Below are positions 31,860 to 43,705 of a stretch of DNA of 64,000 nucleotides, one piece after another. The stretch is from an uncultured Sedimentitalea sp. (GTDB taxonomy: Bacteria; Pseudomonadota; Alphaproteobacteria; Rhodobacterales; Rhodobacteraceae). Position numbers and translations under genes: made by a program. Numbering within the stretch: the first letter of the stretch is position 1; each line of letters begins with the position of its first letter. The DNA is taken from assembly GCA_947504115.1 (NCBI GenBank), contig CANNGH010000002.1, positions 248,001 through 312,000 of the forward strand, read 5' to 3'. A model generated the notes under the pieces. It saw only the letters and a program-made list of their open reading frames with translations. It was not told the DNA's origin and ran no database searches.

Positions 31860-32230
31860 CCCGGCGGTCCCGAAGCGTAGTGCTTCACCAGTTGGAAGGC
31901 GGTTGTGGCGCCGTCGCCAGTGCCGATCGCCTGGTCTGTCGGCGATGGCGTTCCCGATGGCGGGCAGGACGACTTGTGGTCACCCCAGTCCTTGAACCGG
32001 AAGCCGTGCAGGCGCCCGTTTCGCGCCTCGAAGAAGGCAACCACCGCCGCCAGATCGTCCGCGCGGCGGATGCCGTAGGCTACATCATAGCGGCGGCGCG
32101 AATTCGCCCAACTGGCGTTGCGCTCTTCGTCGCCCGAGGCGAGTTCGACGATCTGCGTGCGCCGTTCCGGTCCGCCACGCGCGCCGCGGCTGATGTCGTC
32201 CGGAAACCGGACCTCGTGGAACGCCATCAC
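31860..32230 (-). pseudogene. Phage DUF2460-like tail protein, truncated by IS256 relic
   Basis: MMAFHEVRFPDDISRGARGGPERRTQIVELASGDEERNASWANSRRRYDVAYGIRRADDLAAVVAFFEARNGRLHGFRFKDWGDHK. Confidence 0.8.
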
Positions 32231-34035
32231 ATGCCCCTCCGCCCGAGCGATACGGCGCGGGCGATGTCGGCCGCGACCTGCGTGCGCGATTGGCGGAAGC
32301 TCTCGGCGTCACGCGCCATGATGGTGACGTTGACCCCGCCCGCGCCGTAGGCCTGCGCCTCGCGCCGCGACAGCACGCGCTCGCCCCGCTGCAGGATCGC
32401 GGGCACCTCGTCGTGGCGAAGTCCGACCATGCCGCCGTCATGCATGCGCGGCGCGGCGGCGAAGGCCATGGCCGGGACCATGCGCGAGGGCCCGGCCGAT
32501 CCGACCTTCCCGCCCGCGTGCAGGACGTTCGCGAAGATGCCGCCCGCCCCGGAGAACACGCCGGAGAGCGCGTTTGCGATCGGTCCGAGGATGAACCGCC
32601 GCGCCGCCAGCTGGGCGAGATCCGCCAAGAGCGAGGTGACGAGGTCGCGAAAGTTCAGCTTGCCGGTCTTCACGAACTGGCCCACCGCGTTCTCGGCAGA
32701 CTGGAAGGCGCCGACGAGGCTCTGGCCGATATCGCCGCCGATCTCGCGGGCCTTGCTGGCGTAGTCGGACAGCGCCGCCGTGACCGCCTGCCAGCCGGTG
32801 ACCGCCGTCTCGACGTTCGGCTCGGCCGCGGCAGCCGCAGCGCCTGCGGCAGCGCCGGCATCGGTCGCAGCCTGCCCGGCGCCGTCGAGCGCGGTCTCGA
32901 AGCGCTCTGCTGCTGCCGTGGCCTCGGCCAACGCATCGGCGCTATCCTCATCTGTGCCGCTGACCGCTTCACGCAGCGCCTGCCAACTCTCAAGCGGGGC
33001 GCGCGCCCCTTCCGCCAGATCGCGTGCCGCGCCCCGGTAGACATTCGCGGACTCGAGCGCCCGGTTCGCCGCGTCCGTGAGCCCGAGATCGGGTGCGGTG
33101 AGCGGATTGTCCTCGAAGGCGCGGTCGAACGCCGCCTGCGCAGCTGTCGTGGCAGCACTGGCCGCACCCTCGAAGCGGTTCTCGATCTCGCCGAGGTCGA
33201 GGTCTGGCACCAGCGAGATGCGCCGCTCCGACCCAAGCGTCTCGAGGCCGGCGTTGATGCCGCCGATGAAGCCGTTGATGCGCGAGACCACCCCGTTCAG
33301 CATGGCTTCGACACCGTCGACCAGGCTGTTGGCCGCTTGGAACGCCAGATCGCCGATGGCGGCGGGCAGCAGGCCCCAGATCGCCTTGATCGCCTCGTAG
33401 GCGCCCTCGAAGGTGTTCGCGGCGGTGTTGCCGAAACCCACCACGCTCTCGATGGCGCTCTGCATTCCGGAGGCGGCGTCGGCCGTCAGATCGAAGAACA
33501 TCGCCGCGGCGGCTGCACCCGCCGCAGCGGCGCCCATCCTGATCCGCTCCCAGACCTCGACCGCGACATCCTTCAAGAGTGACATCGCTTCGCCGAAGCC
33601 GCCCGCGCCGGAGACGAGACGGGTGAACTGATAGACGAACTCGCCCGCGCCGACGATCAGGGCACCGATGCCGGTGCGGATCAGGGCGCCGCGCAGGATG
33701 ACGAGCGCCGTGGCAAGGCCCCGCACGGAGAGCGCGGCGGCGGCCATGCCTGCCACCCAGCGGCCCGCGAGGAACGCCGCGAAGGTGGGGTCAACCGGGT
33801 TGCCGTCCGCATCGCCGATGCCGTCCCAGGCGAGCACGGCCCGCCGCGCCAGCGCCTTGGCAAAGGCGACGGCGCGCTCCTCGTCCGAGACCTCCTCGGG
33901 CACCGCCTCCACTGCGGGGTCGCTGCGCGTCGCGACCATAACGGCCGTCGTCAGCGGGCGGAGTTGCACCCGCACGCCGGGCGCGAGATCATGCCAGCGC
34001 GGCGCGTTGGTCAGGTCGAGCGTCAACATCCTCAA
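32227..34035 (-). CDS. Phage tail tape-measure protein, apparently fused to a tail-assembly-chaperone-like N-terminus
   Basis: N-term ~90 aa chaperone-like (LDLTNAPRWHDLAPGVRVQLRPLTTAVMVATRSDPAVEAVPEEV), rest tape-measure-like. Confidence 0.7.
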   Translation of the reverse strand: MRMLTLDLTNAPRWHDLAPGVRVQLRPLTTAVMVATRSDPAVEAVPEEVSDEERAVAFAKALARRAVLAWDGIGDADGNPVDPTFAAFLAGRWVAGMAAAALSVRGLATALVILRGALIRTGIGALIVGAGEFVYQFTRLVSGAGGFGEAMSLLKDVAVEVWERIRMGAAAAGAAAAAMFFDLTADAASGMQSAIESVVGFGNTAANTFEGAYEAIKAIWGLLPAAIGDLAFQAANSLVDGVEAMLNGVVSRINGFIGGINAGLETLGSERRISLVPDLDLGEIENRFEGAASAATTAAQAAFDRAFEDNPLTAPDLGLTDAANRALESANVYRGAARDLAEGARAPLESWQALREAVSGTDEDSADALAEATAAAERFETALDGAGQAATDAGAAAGAAAAAAEPNVETAVTGWQAVTAALSDYASKAREIGGDIGQSLVGAFQSAENAVGQFVKTGKLNFRDLVTSLLADLAQLAARRFILGPIANALSGVFSGAGGIFANVLHAGGKVGSAGPSRMVPAMAFAAAPRMHDGGMVGLRHDEVPAILQRGERVLSRREAQAYGAGGVNVTIMARDAESFRQSRTQVAADIARAVSLGRRGM

Positions 34036-35867: not shown

Positions 35868-36725
35868 ATGTACGAAGGGCTGGCAAAGGGATACGCAACA
35901 GCATTTGTCCGACAACAGACGGACCACGGTGCGATCCGCGCCTGGCTTGAAAGTCCGAGAAGGCCCCAAGCCTTCAAAAAGTTCGCGCTCTCTTCTCAAC
36001 TTGGCCATGAGGGGCGCATCATTGAAACAATGACGCCCTTAGTTTGCCCGCCTTTCCATAAAGTCTTTGTGCCCGCCCCATGGAGCAAATTGGTTAAATC
36101 GGTCGGCGCTCATTTGGTCACAGCAGCACCGGAAACCGAGGTATTCCGATCCGATCAGGTCGATGAACTCGATTTTGACGAGCGATCAGTATTTCTGAAC
36201 AACCTATTCTATATCGCGACCAAGGAAAGCGTGGACTCTACATTGCTCACCGTCGCAAACATGTCTCACCACACAATCACAAGATTGCTTCAACGCGGCC
36301 TCGCTGACGAGCAGAATCTAGACTATTTCGTCTGGCTCTCGATGGCAATTGCCCGGGATCTTGCGCAGATTTTTGGGTTGACGTCTCTCAAGCAGGATGA
36401 AGCCTACGATTTCCTTATTCCTTTTATGGGCGGCGCGTTTGTTGCTCGGACAATGAAGGTGTCTCCCGGGATCGAAAAGTCTTATCAAGGAGACCGCTGG
36501 GTCTTCTCGCTTCGAACATTTCTCGAAGAAGGCATGTTGAAAGCAGGCGACCATGAGCGCATAGCGGGCATGGATATTGAAAGTGATGGAACGATGCAAC
36601 TTCGCTGGCTAGGGCGCACTAGGGAGATGCAGCGAGGCATCATGCGGGAAGACGACGTCAATCACATCAAGGGATGGTTGCAGGCGAATGCGCGGCCATC
36701 GAGGCCGAGGGCCCACGATCGATGA
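35868..36725 (+). CDS. Hypothetical protein, first gene of exonuclease/helicase/TPR-OB cluster
   Basis: 285-aa ORF, no recognised domain; 18 nt upstream of next gene. Confidence 0.6.
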   Translation: MYEGLAKGYATAFVRQQTDHGAIRAWLESPRRPQAFKKFALSSQLGHEGRIIETMTPLVCPPFHKVFVPAPWSKLVKSVGAHLVTAAPETEVFRSDQVDELDFDERSVFLNNLFYIATKESVDSTLLTVANMSHHTITRLLQRGLADEQNLDYFVWLSMAIARDLAQIFGLTSLKQDEAYDFLIPFMGGAFVARTMKVSPGIEKSYQGDRWVFSLRTFLEEGMLKAGDHERIAGMDIESDGTMQLRWLGRTREMQRGIMREDDVNHIKGWLQANARPSRPRAHDR

Positions 36726-36743
36726 GGTTGAGGCATCTGCGTC

Positions 36744-37703
36744 GTGGTCGAAGATGACGGGCGGACTGCCGGGGCCAAGGCCGACATGAACGACTACGAC
36801 ATCTTCGCGACTTCTCCCGACGAAGTCCTTCAGGACAGCGCGACACTTCGAGCCGACGACTGGCGACTGCTTCTTCGTCTGTCTCTGCCGCGCGTCCTGA
36901 ATGAGCCGCGCGGCGGCTCCCGAAAGCGTGCGCTTGTCGTCGATGTTGAAACTACAGGGCTGTCGCCAGCGGTCGACGAGGTTATCCAACTGGCGATGCT
37001 GCCCTTCATCTACGAGCCTGAAACCGGCCGGATCCTCGAGATTGAGCACGACTGCGCCTTTGAGGGCCTCCGTGAACCCGCGACACCCATCTCCGACGAG
37101 GCAATGCTCGTTACCGGCATCACACAGGAAACGTTGGAGAGCCGTCGGATCGAGACCAAGGTTGTCGAGGAAATCGTCGCCGGTGTGGACCTTGTTGTGG
37201 CCCACAATGCTGCGTTCGATCGGCTGATGGTGGAGAAGCACTGGAACTGCTTCGCCGAAAAGCCGTGGTCCTGCTCGCTTGCGAGCGTAGACTGGCTTCG
37301 AGAGGGATACTCGGCCGGCAAGTTGGACTACCTCGGCATGCGTTTCGGGTGGTTCTACGACGCCCATCGTGCGCTCGCCGATTGCGAGGCCTGCCTAGCG
37401 CTTCTCGCACAAGAGCTACCGGTTTCTGGCCGCAGGGTCATGTCGGTCGTTCGGGAGGCTGCGTTTCGGGAGGAGCATCTCATCTGCGCTGTAGACGCCC
37501 CTTTCGATCTCCGCCTTAGGCTAAAGGAGCGGGGCTACCGATGGCGTCCGGCCGAGCTTCCCTCTGGCAAAGTTTGGTGGACGATCACCCTCGATCCCGA
37601 GACCGAGATCGCATGGCTCAGATCCGAGATCTACGGACGCGAAGCAACTGTCCCGACCCGGAAGGTGACCGCGATGAATCGGTTCTCCGAGCGGATTTGC
37701 TAG
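36744..37703 (+). CDS. DnaQ-like 3'-5' exonuclease (DEDDh)
   Basis: VVDVETTGLSPAVDEVIQLAMLPF (ExoI), VVAHNAAFDRLMVEKH (ExoII), DAHRALADCEACLALL (ExoIII). Confidence 0.88.
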   Translation: MVEDDGRTAGAKADMNDYDIFATSPDEVLQDSATLRADDWRLLLRLSLPRVLNEPRGGSRKRALVVDVETTGLSPAVDEVIQLAMLPFIYEPETGRILEIEHDCAFEGLREPATPISDEAMLVTGITQETLESRRIETKVVEEIVAGVDLVVAHNAAFDRLMVEKHWNCFAEKPWSCSLASVDWLREGYSAGKLDYLGMRFGWFYDAHRALADCEACLALLAQELPVSGRRVMSVVREAAFREEHLICAVDAPFDLRLRLKERGYRWRPAELPSGKVWWTITLDPETEIAWLRSEIYGREATVPTRKVTAMNRFSERIC

Positions 37704-38032
37704 ACAGCGACCGGAGGTAGCTGTTGGCAGGATGGATCGGTAGCGCTCCTCGCGGGCCTGAGCACCACCTTCGATCAAGAACCTTCAAGCTTTCATCCGA
37801 CAGTCGGAGCCCTGATTTCGCAGCGGACCCACCAAAAGGCAAGCGGCACGCCCCCCAATCCCCGTTGGCACCGCCTTGTTCCCGTGAGCGGTTTGACGAC
37901 CCCCTCGCCTCGTCGGCTTTGAACGAGAGCGCTCGGGAACTCCGAAAAAACTTCGTTGCATCTCAGACTTGGGCGCGTCAAGTTCGCGCATAGGGCGCAT
38001 CGAGCCAGTTTTTTCAGCACGACGAAGTACGG

Positions 38033-40123
38033 ATGCAAATCGAACTCACATCGGAACAGTCCAAAGCCGTTGAGGCAGTTCGTAGTTTCCTCATGGATGA
38101 CACGGCCGACGTTTTCGTCCTCGCGGGAAGCGCCGGGACCGGCAAGACGACGATGATCGCGAGGCTCGTCGAGGTTGTCGCGGAGATGAAGCTTTCCTGC
38201 GCGCTGGCGGCGCCTACCGGGCGCGCGGCCCGGATCCTGGGGGACAAGGTCGCGCAGGCCACGGGCTGGGAGGTCCAAGCCAAGACCATCCACAGCCTGA
38301 TTTACGCGCTCGACAGGCTTGAGGTGAACGAGGAGGCGGAGGCCGTGAACGATCCTGGCCTGCGATGGTTCTTTCCGCTCGCGGAGGACGAGCCGGCAAT
38401 GTCGGTCCTCATCGTTGACGAGGCGTCCATGGTCGGCGACCGGGAAGTCCGTGGTGACGTGATCCGTTTCGGGTCTGGCCGTCTTCTCAAGGACCTCGTT
38501 ACCTTCGCGCGGTCCCGGCGCAGAGAGGGCTCCGACGATCGGCTCGTCAAGCTTCTCTTCGTGGGCGACCCAGCTCAGTTGCCTCCGGTCGGAGAGGAAG
38601 AATCGCCGGCCCTATCGCCGCAGCGACTCGAAGCCGAGTTCGGGCTGACGGTGTCCACCTTCCAGCTCGGAACGGTGATGCGCCAGCGCGAGGGCAGCGC
38701 AATCCTTGAGCGGGCCACCGAGATTCGGAAGGCGATCGCCGCCGAAGTCTTCAACGCTTTCTCGTTGGAGCCGGATGGCGAGGAGATCATCCGGATCGAG
38801 TCCGAGGTCGCATTCGACGTCCTGGAGCGGAGCGTGCGATCGCGCGGCTCGAGCGTGGCTGTTGTCCGGTCCAACGCCGCCGCGCTGGAGTACAATCGCG
38901 GCATCCGCGAGCGGCTCTGGGGCGACGCGTCGCGCCCTGTGCAGGTCGGCGATATCCTGTTGGTGAACCGCAACGCCCACTTGGTCTCCCTGCGCAACGG
39001 CGATCTCGTCAAGGTGCTGGACGTGACGCCGACAGCCGAGCGCGCCTCCGTGCCGGTCAAGGGCGGAGGGAGCGTCGAACTCTCCTTCCGGGACGCAACC
39101 GTCGCCTACAGGGAGGCCGACGGGACCGTCGTCAGACTGCCGTGCAAAATACTCGAGAACCTTCTCGACTCTCCGGGGCGGGAATTGACGCCCCTCGAAC
39201 AGCGGGCGCTCCTCGTTCACTTCCGCCAGCGGAACCCGCAGCTGAAGCCCAAGTCCAGAGAGTTCGCCAAGAATCTCAGAGCGGACCCGTACTTCAACGC
39301 AGTCCAGGTAAAATTCGGCTATGCCATGACATGCCACAAGGCGCAGGGCGGCGAGTGGGACGAAGTGCTGGTGGACTTCGCCGACGTCGGGGGCGCCCGG
39401 AACCGCGCCTTCTTCCGCTGGGCGTATACCGCGCTTACCCGCGCCAAACGCCGTCTATACGTCGTCGAGCCGCCTGACTTCGACGTAATCTCAGCGGACA
39501 TGTGGGGCGAGATCGATGTCGCCGAGGAGGTCACATGCACTGGCGAGTCGGAGGCCGCCAAGCTAGATCCCGATTGGGATCGGTTCTCTTTCTCAACGGC
39601 AACGGCCACACTGCTGCCTCGGCATCGACAGCTTCGGGAACGCTGGTCAGCCCGAGGCATCGATGTCGCAAGACTGGCGCATCTCGAATACTGTGAGCGC
39701 TACACCTTGGTGCGGGACGGGGCAACAGCAGAACTCCAGTACTACTACAACGGCAAGAACCTTCTCCGCCGGTTTGGGCCCACTCCCGGCACGCGCTCGG
39801 ATGAGAGCCTTCTTGCGGAAGCACTGTCCGCGTTCGACGGGCTGGAAGGTCCTCATGACCGCGAAGAACCGGATGAGTTCGTGGCCGACTTCCTGAAACG
39901 CCTCGACGCGTCGCTCGATGGGGCTGAGATACGCCGTACATCGTTCAAGTTGATGCCTTATCGGCTACGCGTTTCCTTTGCCGACGGTTCTCGGCGCGGC
40001 GACATCGACTTCACCTACGATGGCTCCAAGACATGGACGGCAGCACAGGAGGTCGGGGGACCAGGCGCAAGCGGCGGACTGTACAGCGAGGTTCAGCGGC
40101 TGATGAAGCAGCTGAAAAACTAG
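38033..40123 (+). CDS. RecD-like SF1 helicase with long C-terminal extension
   Basis: LAGSAGTGKTTMIARL (Walker A), LIVDEASMVGD (Walker B), CHKAQGGEWDEV, AYTALTRAKRRLYVV (UvrD_C_2-like); ~200 aa extension beyond the helicase core. Confidence 0.88.
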   Translation: MQIELTSEQSKAVEAVRSFLMDDTADVFVLAGSAGTGKTTMIARLVEVVAEMKLSCALAAPTGRAARILGDKVAQATGWEVQAKTIHSLIYALDRLEVNEEAEAVNDPGLRWFFPLAEDEPAMSVLIVDEASMVGDREVRGDVIRFGSGRLLKDLVTFARSRRREGSDDRLVKLLFVGDPAQLPPVGEEESPALSPQRLEAEFGLTVSTFQLGTVMRQREGSAILERATEIRKAIAAEVFNAFSLEPDGEEIIRIESEVAFDVLERSVRSRGSSVAVVRSNAAALEYNRGIRERLWGDASRPVQVGDILLVNRNAHLVSLRNGDLVKVLDVTPTAERASVPVKGGGSVELSFRDATVAYREADGTVVRLPCKILENLLDSPGRELTPLEQRALLVHFRQRNPQLKPKSREFAKNLRADPYFNAVQVKFGYAMTCHKAQGGEWDEVLVDFADVGGARNRAFFRWAYTALTRAKRRLYVVEPPDFDVISADMWGEIDVAEEVTCTGESEAAKLDPDWDRFSFSTATATLLPRHRQLRERWSARGIDVARLAHLEYCERYTLVRDGATAELQYYYNGKNLLRRFGPTPGTRSDESLLAEALSAFDGLEGPHDREEPDEFVADFLKRLDASLDGAEIRRTSFKLMPYRLRVSFADGSRRGDIDFTYDGSKTWTAAQEVGGPGASGGLYSEVQRLMKQLKN

Positions 40124-40126
40124 GAT

Positions 40127-41575
40127 ATGGACTCAAAAGAGATTTTTGCGCTGCGCCGCGCAGGAAAATCCGCAGAGGCGCTGGAAGCAGCCCGCGCCAG
40201 CCTCTTGGGGCATGAAAACGACCTCTGGTTTTTACGGGCCTATGCTTGGGCAATCTACGATCAGGCCAAAAAGATCGTAGAGGACCACGAGCAGAAACGA
40301 CTTTCCGATTCCGCGATGGGCCACCGCATCTCGCCGTATATGCGCGAATTCTCGCAGATAGGCGCTCCCCTCCGTGGCGATACAGCCTTCTCGCAGATGC
40401 TACGCCTTGCCGGAAAGGTTTCCCGCCATTGGCCGGATTTTCTCGCTTTTGCGCAATGGGCCGGCATCGACGGTTTTGAGGCCGAGGACCTAGCGCCCTT
40501 CGTCACCGAGGACGGCAGGCGGGTCGACAGCCTGCAGCGCAGGTTCGTCCGTGCGGTTGCTCGAGAGGCTGCATCCGCGGCGGCTGAGGGGCGTCGGGAC
40601 TCCGATCCGGTCCGTTGGGCGCTAACGATCCTGGCACAAGCGCTTGCGGAAGATCCGACCGACCAGTGGCTCAATTACTACCAGAGCAAGATCGACCTGA
40701 GCGAGGATCGGTTTCAAGACGCAGTGCGTCGTCTCGTACCGATATTGCGAAGGCAGTCGAGAGCCGCCTGGCCTTGGGCCCTGCTCGGCGAGATACTCGA
40801 AAAGACGCAGCCCGCGAAGGCCGTGGTTTGCTACGTCCATGCCACGGAACTGGCGCGGGACGAGCAGGAGGTTGCGCGCGTCCGGATTCGGCTGGCCGAG
40901 CTTCTGGCAGCGCAGGAGAGGTTCGACGAAGCGGCCTTTCAGGCACACCTAGCAGCGCGTTATCGCGAAGAGCATGGTTTCAAGACGCCGGCGGAACTGT
41001 CGCGGCTGCTGCAGAGCGATTGGTACACGCGCGAGTTTCGAACGGATCGGCCGAAGCCTCCGCCGAAGGCCGCGAGCGCGGCGAGAAAACTCCTCGCGGA
41101 GCTTGATGCAAGGCCTGTTGTTTACTCCCTCGGCGTCGTCGAGCACATTAACGAGAAGAAGGCCCTCACTTATGTGGCAACTGGCGTGGAGAGTGGATCT
41201 CCGATGCCCCACGGGCGCTTTCCAGAAATCGCCGAGGTCGAGCCGGGCACTATCGTAGAGATCGGAAGCACCGACCCGGCTGAGAAGCCGACTGACTGGA
41301 GACGGGCCGAGGCCGAAGTAATCCCGGGGTTCTGCGAGGACGTAACGGGCCGGATCGAGCGGCACGAGGGAAACAGCTTCGCCTTCCTTCGCAATCCTCG
41401 CGGCGACGTCTTCGTCCCGCCCGACTTGGCGAAGAAAGTCGGTGACGGTGAGGCCGCAGAACGATCCGTACGAGCCGTACTGCGAAAGGCAAAGAACGGA
41501 AAGGTGGGCTGGAAGGCGCTCAAGTTTCTAAGCAGAGGCCAAGAAGCACCAAGTATCGATTGTGGGGGCCTTTGA
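40127..41575 (+). CDS. TPR-like protein with C-terminal OB-fold (S1/CSD-like) segments
   Basis: N-terminal helical repeats; C-terminal VYSLGVVEHINEKKALTYVATGVESGS... and GRIERHEGNSFAFLRNPRGDVFVPPDLAKKV; start 3 nt after helicase stop. Confidence 0.6.
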   Translation: MDSKEIFALRRAGKSAEALEAARASLLGHENDLWFLRAYAWAIYDQAKKIVEDHEQKRLSDSAMGHRISPYMREFSQIGAPLRGDTAFSQMLRLAGKVSRHWPDFLAFAQWAGIDGFEAEDLAPFVTEDGRRVDSLQRRFVRAVAREAASAAAEGRRDSDPVRWALTILAQALAEDPTDQWLNYYQSKIDLSEDRFQDAVRRLVPILRRQSRAAWPWALLGEILEKTQPAKAVVCYVHATELARDEQEVARVRIRLAELLAAQERFDEAAFQAHLAARYREEHGFKTPAELSRLLQSDWYTREFRTDRPKPPPKAASAARKLLAELDARPVVYSLGVVEHINEKKALTYVATGVESGSPMPHGRFPEIAEVEPGTIVEIGSTDPAEKPTDWRRAEAEVIPGFCEDVTGRIERHEGNSFAFLRNPRGDVFVPPDLAKKVGDGEAAERSVRAVLRKAKNGKVGWKALKFLSRGQEAPSIDCGGL

Positions 41576-42758: not shown

Positions 42759-43705
42759 TTGTCCGATTTGAAGCCTCGTTCGATCAACATTTTCCTACTT
42801 GATGGCGACCCAAACGGAATCCGCGTCGCGCAGATATCTATGTCTACAATTCAGGCAATCGCCTTCCGAAGGAATCAACTTCGACGCGTCAGGGAGGCGT
42901 TCCCAGAGATTGAGCGCCCAGGAGTGTACCTTCTTATCGGCACAGACGAGAATGAATCCGACCTTCTGATTGCCTATATAGGGGAATCAGAAGGTATAGG
43001 TGCGCGATTATACACTCACAATTCGAATGATGCGGGACGAGATCCGAAGGGCTTTTGGACCGACACCGTGGTGCTCATCAGCAAGGATGAGAACCTGACA
43101 AAGAGCCACGCGCGATACGTGGAGGCCTGCCTTATCCGGGCGGTGGGAGGGAATCCGCGATGGCTTGTTCCGAACAGCAAGCGTCCTTCAGAAGATGCCG
43201 GTAAACTTCCGCTGCCAGACAGGGCGGCCATGGAGGAGTTCGTCGACCAGACGAAGACGCTAGTCGGCGCGCTCGGGTGGGATTTGTTCCGTGAGATGCG
43301 CGGTAGACCGGCTGAGCCAACAGAGCAGTTGAACGCGGCCGGAGTGGACTCTAGCCCAGTCTTTTTTTCAGGGGGGAGGGCTTTAATGCGGAAATGTCGA
43401 TCGCGCAGTCAGGCGACTTTGTGGTCAAGGAGGGTTCGAAGGCCCGCTCGCGCACTACGCCGACCATCCCGAAGGGTGCCCTTGCTCTGAGGGATACTCT
43501 TCTGAAATCAGGCGTTCTTCGAGAGGATGCTGGGTCCCTAATATTCGCCAGTAACTATAGCTTCACGTCGGCATCTGCGGCGGCGGCAACCGTGATCGGA
43601 GCCAGCGCGAACGGACGCATCCTTTGGAAGCTTGCAGATGGCCGATGCTATGCGGATTGGGAAGCTGAAGGCGCTTTGTCACTGGGGGATGTGCACGTCG
43701 GATAA
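42759..43705 (+). pseudogene. GIY-YIG nuclease / DUF4357-type protein, frameshifted at a G6 tract
   Basis: GVYLLIGTDENESDLLIAYIGESEGIGARL; C-terminal DUF4357-like part (KGALALRDTLLKSGVLREDAGSLIFASNYSFTSASAAAATVIGASANGRILWK) is in another frame. Confidence 0.8.

What the first reader, a model, noticed from the sequence alone, without database searches (positions are those of the whole stretch)
35868..41575. Four-gene cluster: unknown protein, DnaQ-like exonuclease, RecD-like helicase, TPR/OB-fold protein - candidate undescribed conflict or defense system
Seen: four intact co-directional ORFs in a region where nearly every neighbour is truncated or frameshifted. Gaps are 18 nt (gene 1-2), about 330 nt (gene 2-3) and 3 nt (gene 3-4). 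The helicase has ~200 aa beyond its UvrD_C_2-like end, and the last protein pairs helical repeats with two S1/CSD-like segments. Established: exonuclease plus SF1 helicase modules beside restriction-modification remnants and IS elements are typical of defense islands. TPR plus S1/CSD-like proteins resemble components described for TOTE-type conflict systems (recollection only, not verified). Inference: a selected cargo module, possibly antiphage or genome-surveillance.
Basis: partly seen in the sequence, partly recalled or inferred. Interest (0 to 1): 0.8.

Follow-up and report, generated by a model that had tools for sequence, protein, structure and literature searches.

The report
Mobile two-gene helicase defence-candidate module
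Two of the four genes form a mobile pair (a DNA helicase with DNA-clamp-like repeats plus a scaffold protein) already listed as a predicted but untested anti-virus module; the other two genes are unrelated neighbours, so the proposed four-gene system is not real.

Summary
The four ORFs are real, but they are not one system. Genes 3 and 4 (38033-41575) match PADLOC's two-gene candidate PDC-M16 (999 and 709 bits). They carry the Pfam "TOTE conflict system" domains: two TBP-like repeats behind a RecD2/Dda/Pif1-type SF1 helicase, and DUF7017/TPR plus S1/CSD OB-folds. In every locus with a TBP-repeat helicase whose downstream side is covered by the sequence, the partner gene follows directly. DNA similarity to the closest relatives starts at gene 3's start codon, plus a short upstream block in two of them, and ends with gene 4. 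Genes 1 and 2 are absent from all those loci; their homologues occur alone or in other contexts. The pair is rare (5/398 phylum genomes, 51/5426 E. coli) and mobile: prophages, plasmids, IS-bounded E. coli cassettes, defence-rich neighbourhoods. It is under purifying selection (dN/dS 0.14-0.17). Most likely it is an anti-invader helicase module that recognises unusual nucleic acid with its TBP-like and OB domains and unwinds it. Mechanism and antiphage activity are inferred; no experiment was found in the papers searched. By-product: gene 2's exonuclease family precedes Gabija in four plasmids and overlaps a Sir2-HerA operon in a fifth.

The parts
38033..40123 (+). Gene 3: SF1 (RecD2/Dda/Pif1-like) helicase with two C-terminal TBP-like repeats; PADLOC PDC-M16A. 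ATPase and helicase motifs intact.
   Evidence: PDLC04476, 999.5 bits; conserved motifs in the alignment; RecD2, Dda, Pif1 as nearest solved structures; dN/dS 0.14-0.17
39623..39832 (+). TBP-like repeat 1 of gene 3 (PF22721)
   Evidence: homologous to repeat 2 by profile comparison, E 3e-20
39875..40105 (+). TBP-like repeat 2 of gene 3 (PF22721)
40127..41575 (+). Gene 4: TPR-like helical scaffold with DUF7017 and C-terminal S1/CSD OB-fold domains; PADLOC PDC-M16B. Reads 13 aa past the stop used by its two close relatives.
   Evidence: PDLC04481, 708.8 bits; AF2: confident superhelix about 4-328, OB region not confident
37910..38032 (+). Candidate own promoter region of the pair: holds a block of roughly 60 nt that is similar in L002 and L004 but not L003
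   Evidence: Alignment; no consensus sigma-70 site found; function inferred
36744..37703 (+). Gene 2: accessory DEDDh 3'-5' exonuclease (PRK09182/NF006615 type); neighbour, not part of the conserved unit
35868..36725 (+). Gene 1: protein of unknown family, low GC; neighbour, not part of the conserved unit
   Evidence: No Pfam/PADLOC/NCBIfam match; homologues alone in L066 and L067; GC 52.8%

Best explanation
Genes 3 and 4 are a self-contained, mobile two-gene TOTE-type module (PADLOC PDC-M16). Shown: the domain content, the conserved adjacency, the rarity, the carriage on mobile elements and the purifying selection. Inferred: the two proteins act together. The duplicated TBP-like domain (probably a saddle) and the S1/CSD OB-folds recognise a non-standard nucleic acid made by an incoming replicon, most plausibly RNA-DNA hybrids, primed replication intermediates or exposed single strands. 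The TPR scaffold joins the proteins, and the SF1B-type helicase then unwinds or strips that intermediate. In most relatives the helicase also carries an N-terminal HEPN-superfamily DUF4145 domain that could add nuclease or toxin activity. The window's subtype lacks it, so it is either helicase-only or borrows a host nuclease. Genes 1 and 2 are independent neighbours.
For: PDC-M16A/B and TOTE domain matches. Gene 4 homologue directly downstream of the TBP-repeat helicase in the annotated plasmid loci, the E. coli chromosomes, L002 and L003, IMG/VR contigs L076-L079, and all five PF22721-positive genomes of 398 (for G437 the partner is matched). DNA similarity to three relatives starts at 38033 and, in the two with both genes, ends at 41542-41556. 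Contexts: type I R-M operon in Shewanella, hsdS-pair-HrgA-hsdR; cas1/cas2/Csm6 in Rhodothermus; DUF262 and NERD-kinase genes in Acinetobacter; an MZB-domain helicase in L054; prophage lysis or tail genes in L002 and L076. HEPN DUF4145 at the N-terminus of most relatives. Two homologous TBP repeats. dN/dS 0.14-0.17. TBP-like domains of RNase HIII bind DNA-RNA hybrids and are fused to defence RNases (PMC3710099).
Against: No antiphage or biochemical experiment was found in the literature searched. The TBP-like assignment rests on the Pfam model; a profile of the repeats finds no solved TBP by sequence, and the AF2 helicase model is poor (mean pLDDT 51). Carriage on plasmids and phages also fits a replication, repair or counter-defence role for the element itself. 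The window's copy has no nuclease domain.
Confidence: 0.6

Rival explanations
1. The pair serves its own mobile element: it helps prophages or plasmids replicate, recombine or repair (like the phage helicase Dda or RecD2), or counters host nucleases, rather than defending the host.
For: The helicase core is closest to Dda, Pif1 and RecD2. The pair lies on conjugative plasmids next to transfer genes, beside StbA in E. coli cassettes, and in prophages.
Against: Copies sit inside or beside unrelated defence genes and persist in E. coli chromosomes flanked only by IS and ordinary genes. The fused HEPN DUF4145 domain is typical of conflict proteins. It is absent from annotated phage genomes, and carrier plasmids differ widely.
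Confidence: 0.2
2. Four-gene system, with the exonuclease (and gene 1) as effectors of the helicase pair in this lineage.
For: Co-directional and adjacent. The window's helicase lacks the N-terminal effector domain most relatives have. Gene 2's family lies directly upstream of the helicase-containing Gabija operon in four plasmids and overlaps HerA in a Sir2-HerA operon.
Against: No other locus of the pair has gene 1 or 2, including relatives with 88-94% identical helicases that also lack the N-terminal domain. Similarity begins at gene 3. There is a 330-nt gap with a conserved block before gene 3. Gene 1 GC differs. Gene 1 and gene 2 homologues were found in different genomes.
Confidence: 0.1
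3. A non-functional remnant in a decaying island.
For: The region is full of broken genes, and gene 4 reads 13 aa past its ancestral stop.
Against: Both frames are intact, motifs are conserved, and dN/dS against relatives is 0.14-0.17.
Confidence: 0.05

Closest known systems
PADLOC PDC-M16 (phage defence candidate, genes M16A and M16B)
   Same: Both proteins match full length, adjacent and in the same order.
   Different: Nothing defining; this copy belongs to the short-helicase subgroup (PDLC04476, 691 positions) without the N-terminal DUF4145 domain. PDC-M16 was not found in any paper searched.
[quoted passage not shown] 2022, as cited in PMC12458937)
   Same: TPR + OB (S1/CSD) protein and TBP-like repeats.
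   Different: The effector here is only an SF1 helicase; no RNase H, primase or nuclease domain was found in the pair. The original paper was not available to check.
[quoted passage not shown] PMC12458937)
   Same: Shares TPR-CSD and TBP components with TOTE.
   Different: TALON has a YprA-family helicase and a NERD nuclease; here an SF1B helicase and neither of those.
RecD2 / Dda / Pif1 SF1B helicases
   Same: Helicase core.
   Different: These lack the tandem TBP-like repeats and the DUF7017-S1 partner; most viral hits match the core only.
Gabija (GajA-GajB)
   Same: Also a helicase-containing two-gene defence system; the gene 2 exonuclease family is found directly upstream of it.
   Different: Gabija uses an OLD-like ATPase-nuclease and a UvrD helicase; no GajA here.

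Membership tests
PDC-M16 | M16A helicase and M16B protein encoded side by side | tested here: met
   PDLC04476 999.5 bits over 1-693; PDLC04481 708.8 bits over 1-468; 3-nt gap
PDC-M16 | Antiphage activity | not testable with these tools
   Candidate system; no experimental paper found
TOTE conflict systems | TBP-like domain | tested here: met
   PF22721 twice, E 5.6e-36; repeats homologous to each other. The relation to true TBP was not confirmed independently
TOTE conflict systems | OB-fold S1/CSD domains | tested here: met
   PF22707 E 5e-12; first S1/CSD segment only by alignment
TOTE conflict systems | TPR scaffold | tested here: met
   DUF7017 E 4e-27, weak TPR hits; AF2 superhelix, mostly pLDDT 80-95, with TPR structures as best Foldseek hits
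TOTE conflict systems | Effector enzyme | tested here: inconclusive
   SF1 helicase present; the HEPN DUF4145 effector-like domain of most relatives is absent here
TALON | YprA-family helicase plus NERD nuclease | tested here: not met
   Neither among the family matches of genes 1-4
Gabija | GajA ATPase-nuclease beside GajB | tested here: not met
   No GajA among genes 1-4; only weak generic GajB hits to the helicase
Housekeeping helicase/exonuclease at a core locus | Present in most relatives at a fixed place | tested here: not met
   TBP-TOTE over the cut-off in 1 of 298 family genomes (this one); gene 2 homologues in 4 of 199

The most novel reading that the evidence does not exclude
The DEDDh exonuclease family of gene 2 is a swappable accessory that alphaproteobacterial mobile elements place next to different helicase-type defence operons (Gabija, Sir2-HerA, and here the TOTE/PDC-M16 pair), supplying in trans the nuclease that this HEPN-less subtype lacks.
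Probability: 0.12. Interest if true: 0.6.

Novelty: new member of a known kind. Interest (0 to 1): 0.4.

Why it matters
TOTE/PDC-M16 modules are predicted defence systems for which no experiment was found in the literature searched. This analysis fixes the functional unit as two genes, shows that the unit itself moves (on prophages, conjugative plasmids and IS-bounded cassettes), and separates two architectures: with and without an N-terminal HEPN domain. A 99-100% identical E. coli version in 51 of 5426 complete genomes, plus close Klebsiella and Salmonella plasmid copies, makes the prediction testable in laboratory E. coli.

Tried and rejected
Four-gene operon: rejected. Exonuclease fused to the helicase in relatives (a Rosetta-stone link): tested because PADLOC models have about 210 extra N-terminal residues; the extension is DUF4145, not an exonuclease. 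NERD nuclease at the N-terminus of the G437 helicase: suspected, not confirmed by Pfam. HsdR remnant as part of the system: it is 92% identical to a Ketogulonicigenium plasmid HsdR whose operon lacks the pair, and the Shewanella R-M genes have no match in the window. RNA element in the 330-nt gap: no Rfam match. Solved TBP relatives of the repeats: none by sequence. AF2 of the helicase: too poor to interpret beyond the core and a helix-four-strand-helix pattern in each repeat. Empty-site comparison: the right flank is not conserved in relatives, so island borders were not fixed. Solved-structure relatives of gene 1: none. Marinobacterium and Marinilabiliaceae hits (L005-L007) are helicase-core only. 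Literature on TOTE or PDC-M16: only PMC12458937 names TOTE usefully; the 2022 review is not held.

Full report
WHAT IS THERE. The four ORFs exist at the stated coordinates and strand. Gene 1 (285 aa) has no match in Pfam, PADLOC or NCBIfam. Gene 2 (319 aa) is a DEDDh/RNase_T exonuclease of the PRK09182 type (NF006615, 280 bits). Gene 3 (696 aa) is an SF1 helicase with AAA_30 and UvrD_C_2 domains; the 'extra 200 residues' are two copies of PF22721, the TBP-like domain of TOTE conflict systems. The two copies are homologous to each other (hhalign E 3e-20). Gene 4 (482 aa) has DUF7017, weak TPR matches and S1CSD-TOTE-2; a first S1/CSD segment is visible in the alignment with relatives in which S1CSD-TOTE-1 is detected. 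AlphaFold models residues about 4-328 of gene 4 as a confident helical superhelix whose best structural matches are TPR proteins. Its OB region and most of the helicase were modelled poorly. Nearest solved relatives of the helicase are Dda, RecD2, RecD and Pif1.

ALREADY CATALOGUED. PADLOC identifies gene 3 as PDC-M16A (999.5 bits) and gene 4 as PDC-M16B (708.8 bits), full length. So the pair is a listed two-gene defence candidate, and 'undescribed' does not hold. The literature held here gives the expansion TOTE = TPR, OB, TBP, Effector (PMC12458937); PDC systems are described as largely unvalidated (PMC12988326). No paper on PDC-M16 or DUF7017 was found.

THE UNIT IS TWO GENES. In the plasmid records inspected (Rhodothermus x2, Leisingera, Frigidibacter, Shewanella, E. 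coli, Salmonella, Klebsiella, Pseudomonas veronii, Acinetobacter, Sulfurospirillum) a gene 4 homologue lies directly downstream of the TBP-repeat helicase, mostly overlapping by 4 nt. The same holds for E. coli chromosomes, L002 and Sulfitobacter mediterraneus L003, and IMG/VR contigs L076-L079. L004, L008 and L009 are truncated or fragmentary and cannot be judged. As a count not chosen by hand, PF22721 was found in 5 of 398 genomes of the phylum, and all five have the partner downstream (G437's partner is confirmed as PDC-M16B). An independent search with the gene 4 domain in a 299-genome phylum sample had its three strongest other hits in three of those same genomes. Genes 1 and 2 are in none of these loci (tblastn; called ORFs). 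DNA similarity to L002, L003 and L004 begins exactly at 38033, gene 3's start codon. With L002 and L003 it ends at 41542-41556, gene 4's end. A further block of roughly 60 nt just upstream is similar in L002 and L004 only and is the likely promoter region; no sigma-70 consensus was found.

GENES 1 AND 2. Gene 1 homologues were found in 2 of 198 other family genomes, alone among ordinary genes. Gene 2 homologues were found in 3 of 198 others, in different genomes, and in 393 plasmid records. In 12 plasmid neighbourhoods inspected, four have the order exonuclease - GajA - GajB with the same spacing (L072, L073, L177, L178; GajA and GajB confirmed for L072, inferred for the others from annotation and geometry). 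One overlaps the 3' end of HerA in a Sir2-HerA pair (L071). One lies before a large AAA protein (L179). The other six are apparently unrelated to defence or lie by a toxin-antitoxin pair or uncharacterised genes. So gene 2 belongs to an accessory family with some defence links, but not to a TOTE-specific one. The neighbourhoods were taken from the top of the hit list, so this is a lead, not a statistic.

MOBILITY AND CONTEXT. The pair is on conjugative plasmids inside the transfer region. In Shewanella it lies between hsdS and hsdR of a type I R-M operon. In Rhodothermus it is near cas1/cas2 and a Csm6-HEPN protein. In Acinetobacter it is next to NERD-kinase and DUF262 genes. In L054 an MZB-domain helicase lies a few genes upstream. 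In E. coli it sits in an stbA - small ORF - pair cassette between IS elements, in 51 of 5426 genomes. In Rhodobacterales it lies beside prophage genes: L002 next to an endolysin-type peptidase and a tape-measure gene, L076 next to head-tail and endolysin genes. In the window the left neighbour is a broken tail module (tail terminator, minor tail protein, tape measure fused to a chaperone gene), 69-76% identical in DNA to the one in L002. The right side has an IS110 fragment, an HsdR remnant, a frameshifted GIY-YIG/DUF4357 gene matching PDC-S14 and an integrase. Both genes are under purifying selection (dN/dS 0.14-0.17).

ARCHITECTURES. Most relatives carry an N-terminal DUF4145 domain on the helicase; DUF4145 belongs to the HEPN superfamily (PMC3710099). 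The window copy, L002, L003 and Rhodothermus lack it. L176 (G437) has a different N-terminal region that Pfam does not recognise.

HOW IT LIKELY WORKS. Shown: the parts, their linkage and their mobility. Inferred: TBP-like repeats plus OB-folds recognise a nucleic-acid structure; TBP-like domains of RNase HIII bind DNA-RNA hybrids and similar ones are fused to defence RNases (PMC3710099). The helicase then unwinds it, blocking replication or gene expression of the invader, with the HEPN domain as an added effector where present. The main alternative is a replication or counter-defence role for the carrier element.

VERDICT. Observation largely right, interpretation half right. It is a new member of a known, unvalidated kind, and worth an ordinary test in E. 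coli.

Noticed in passing
L072:4914-9754, L073:4869-9772, L177:4896-9754, L178:4896-9763: A DEDDh exonuclease of gene 2's family lies 30-43 nt upstream of a Gabija-type (GajA-GajB) pair in four alphaproteobacterial plasmids, suggesting a three-gene Gabija variant.
   Followed up: partly
L071:1563-5792: SIR2 - HerA - exonuclease array in a Haematobacter plasmid: the exonuclease overlaps the 3' end of HerA (PADLOC HerA, 989 bits).
   Followed up: partly
L057:11337-16361 and L058:11337-16361: Compact stbA - small ORF - PDC-M16 pair cassette between IS26/IS1 and IS903/IS5-type elements in E. coli chromosomes; the pair is in 51 of 5426 complete genomes, on chromosomes and plasmids.
   Followed up: partly
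L046:4902-14837: PDC-M16 pair embedded inside a type I restriction-modification operon (hsdS - pair - HrgA - hsdR); the E. coli cassettes keep a 33-aa start of the same HrgA right after the pair.
   Followed up: no
window 32230-34035 (-): Tail assembly chaperone fused in frame to the C-terminal part of a tape-measure protein, apparently by an internal deletion in a decaying prophage.
   Followed up: no
window 42759-43705 (+): GIY-YIG + DUF4357 gene (PADLOC PDC-S14) broken by a frame change.
   Followed up: no
L004:10001-11903: Sulfitobacter F26204 helicase is 95% identical in DNA up to window position 39360, then similarity ends abruptly within the gene near the contig end: a truncated copy or an assembly join.
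   Followed up: no
window 38033-41575: Synonymous distances are uneven: gene 3 is closer to L003 and gene 4 closer to L002, which hints at recombination between copies of the module.
   Followed up: no
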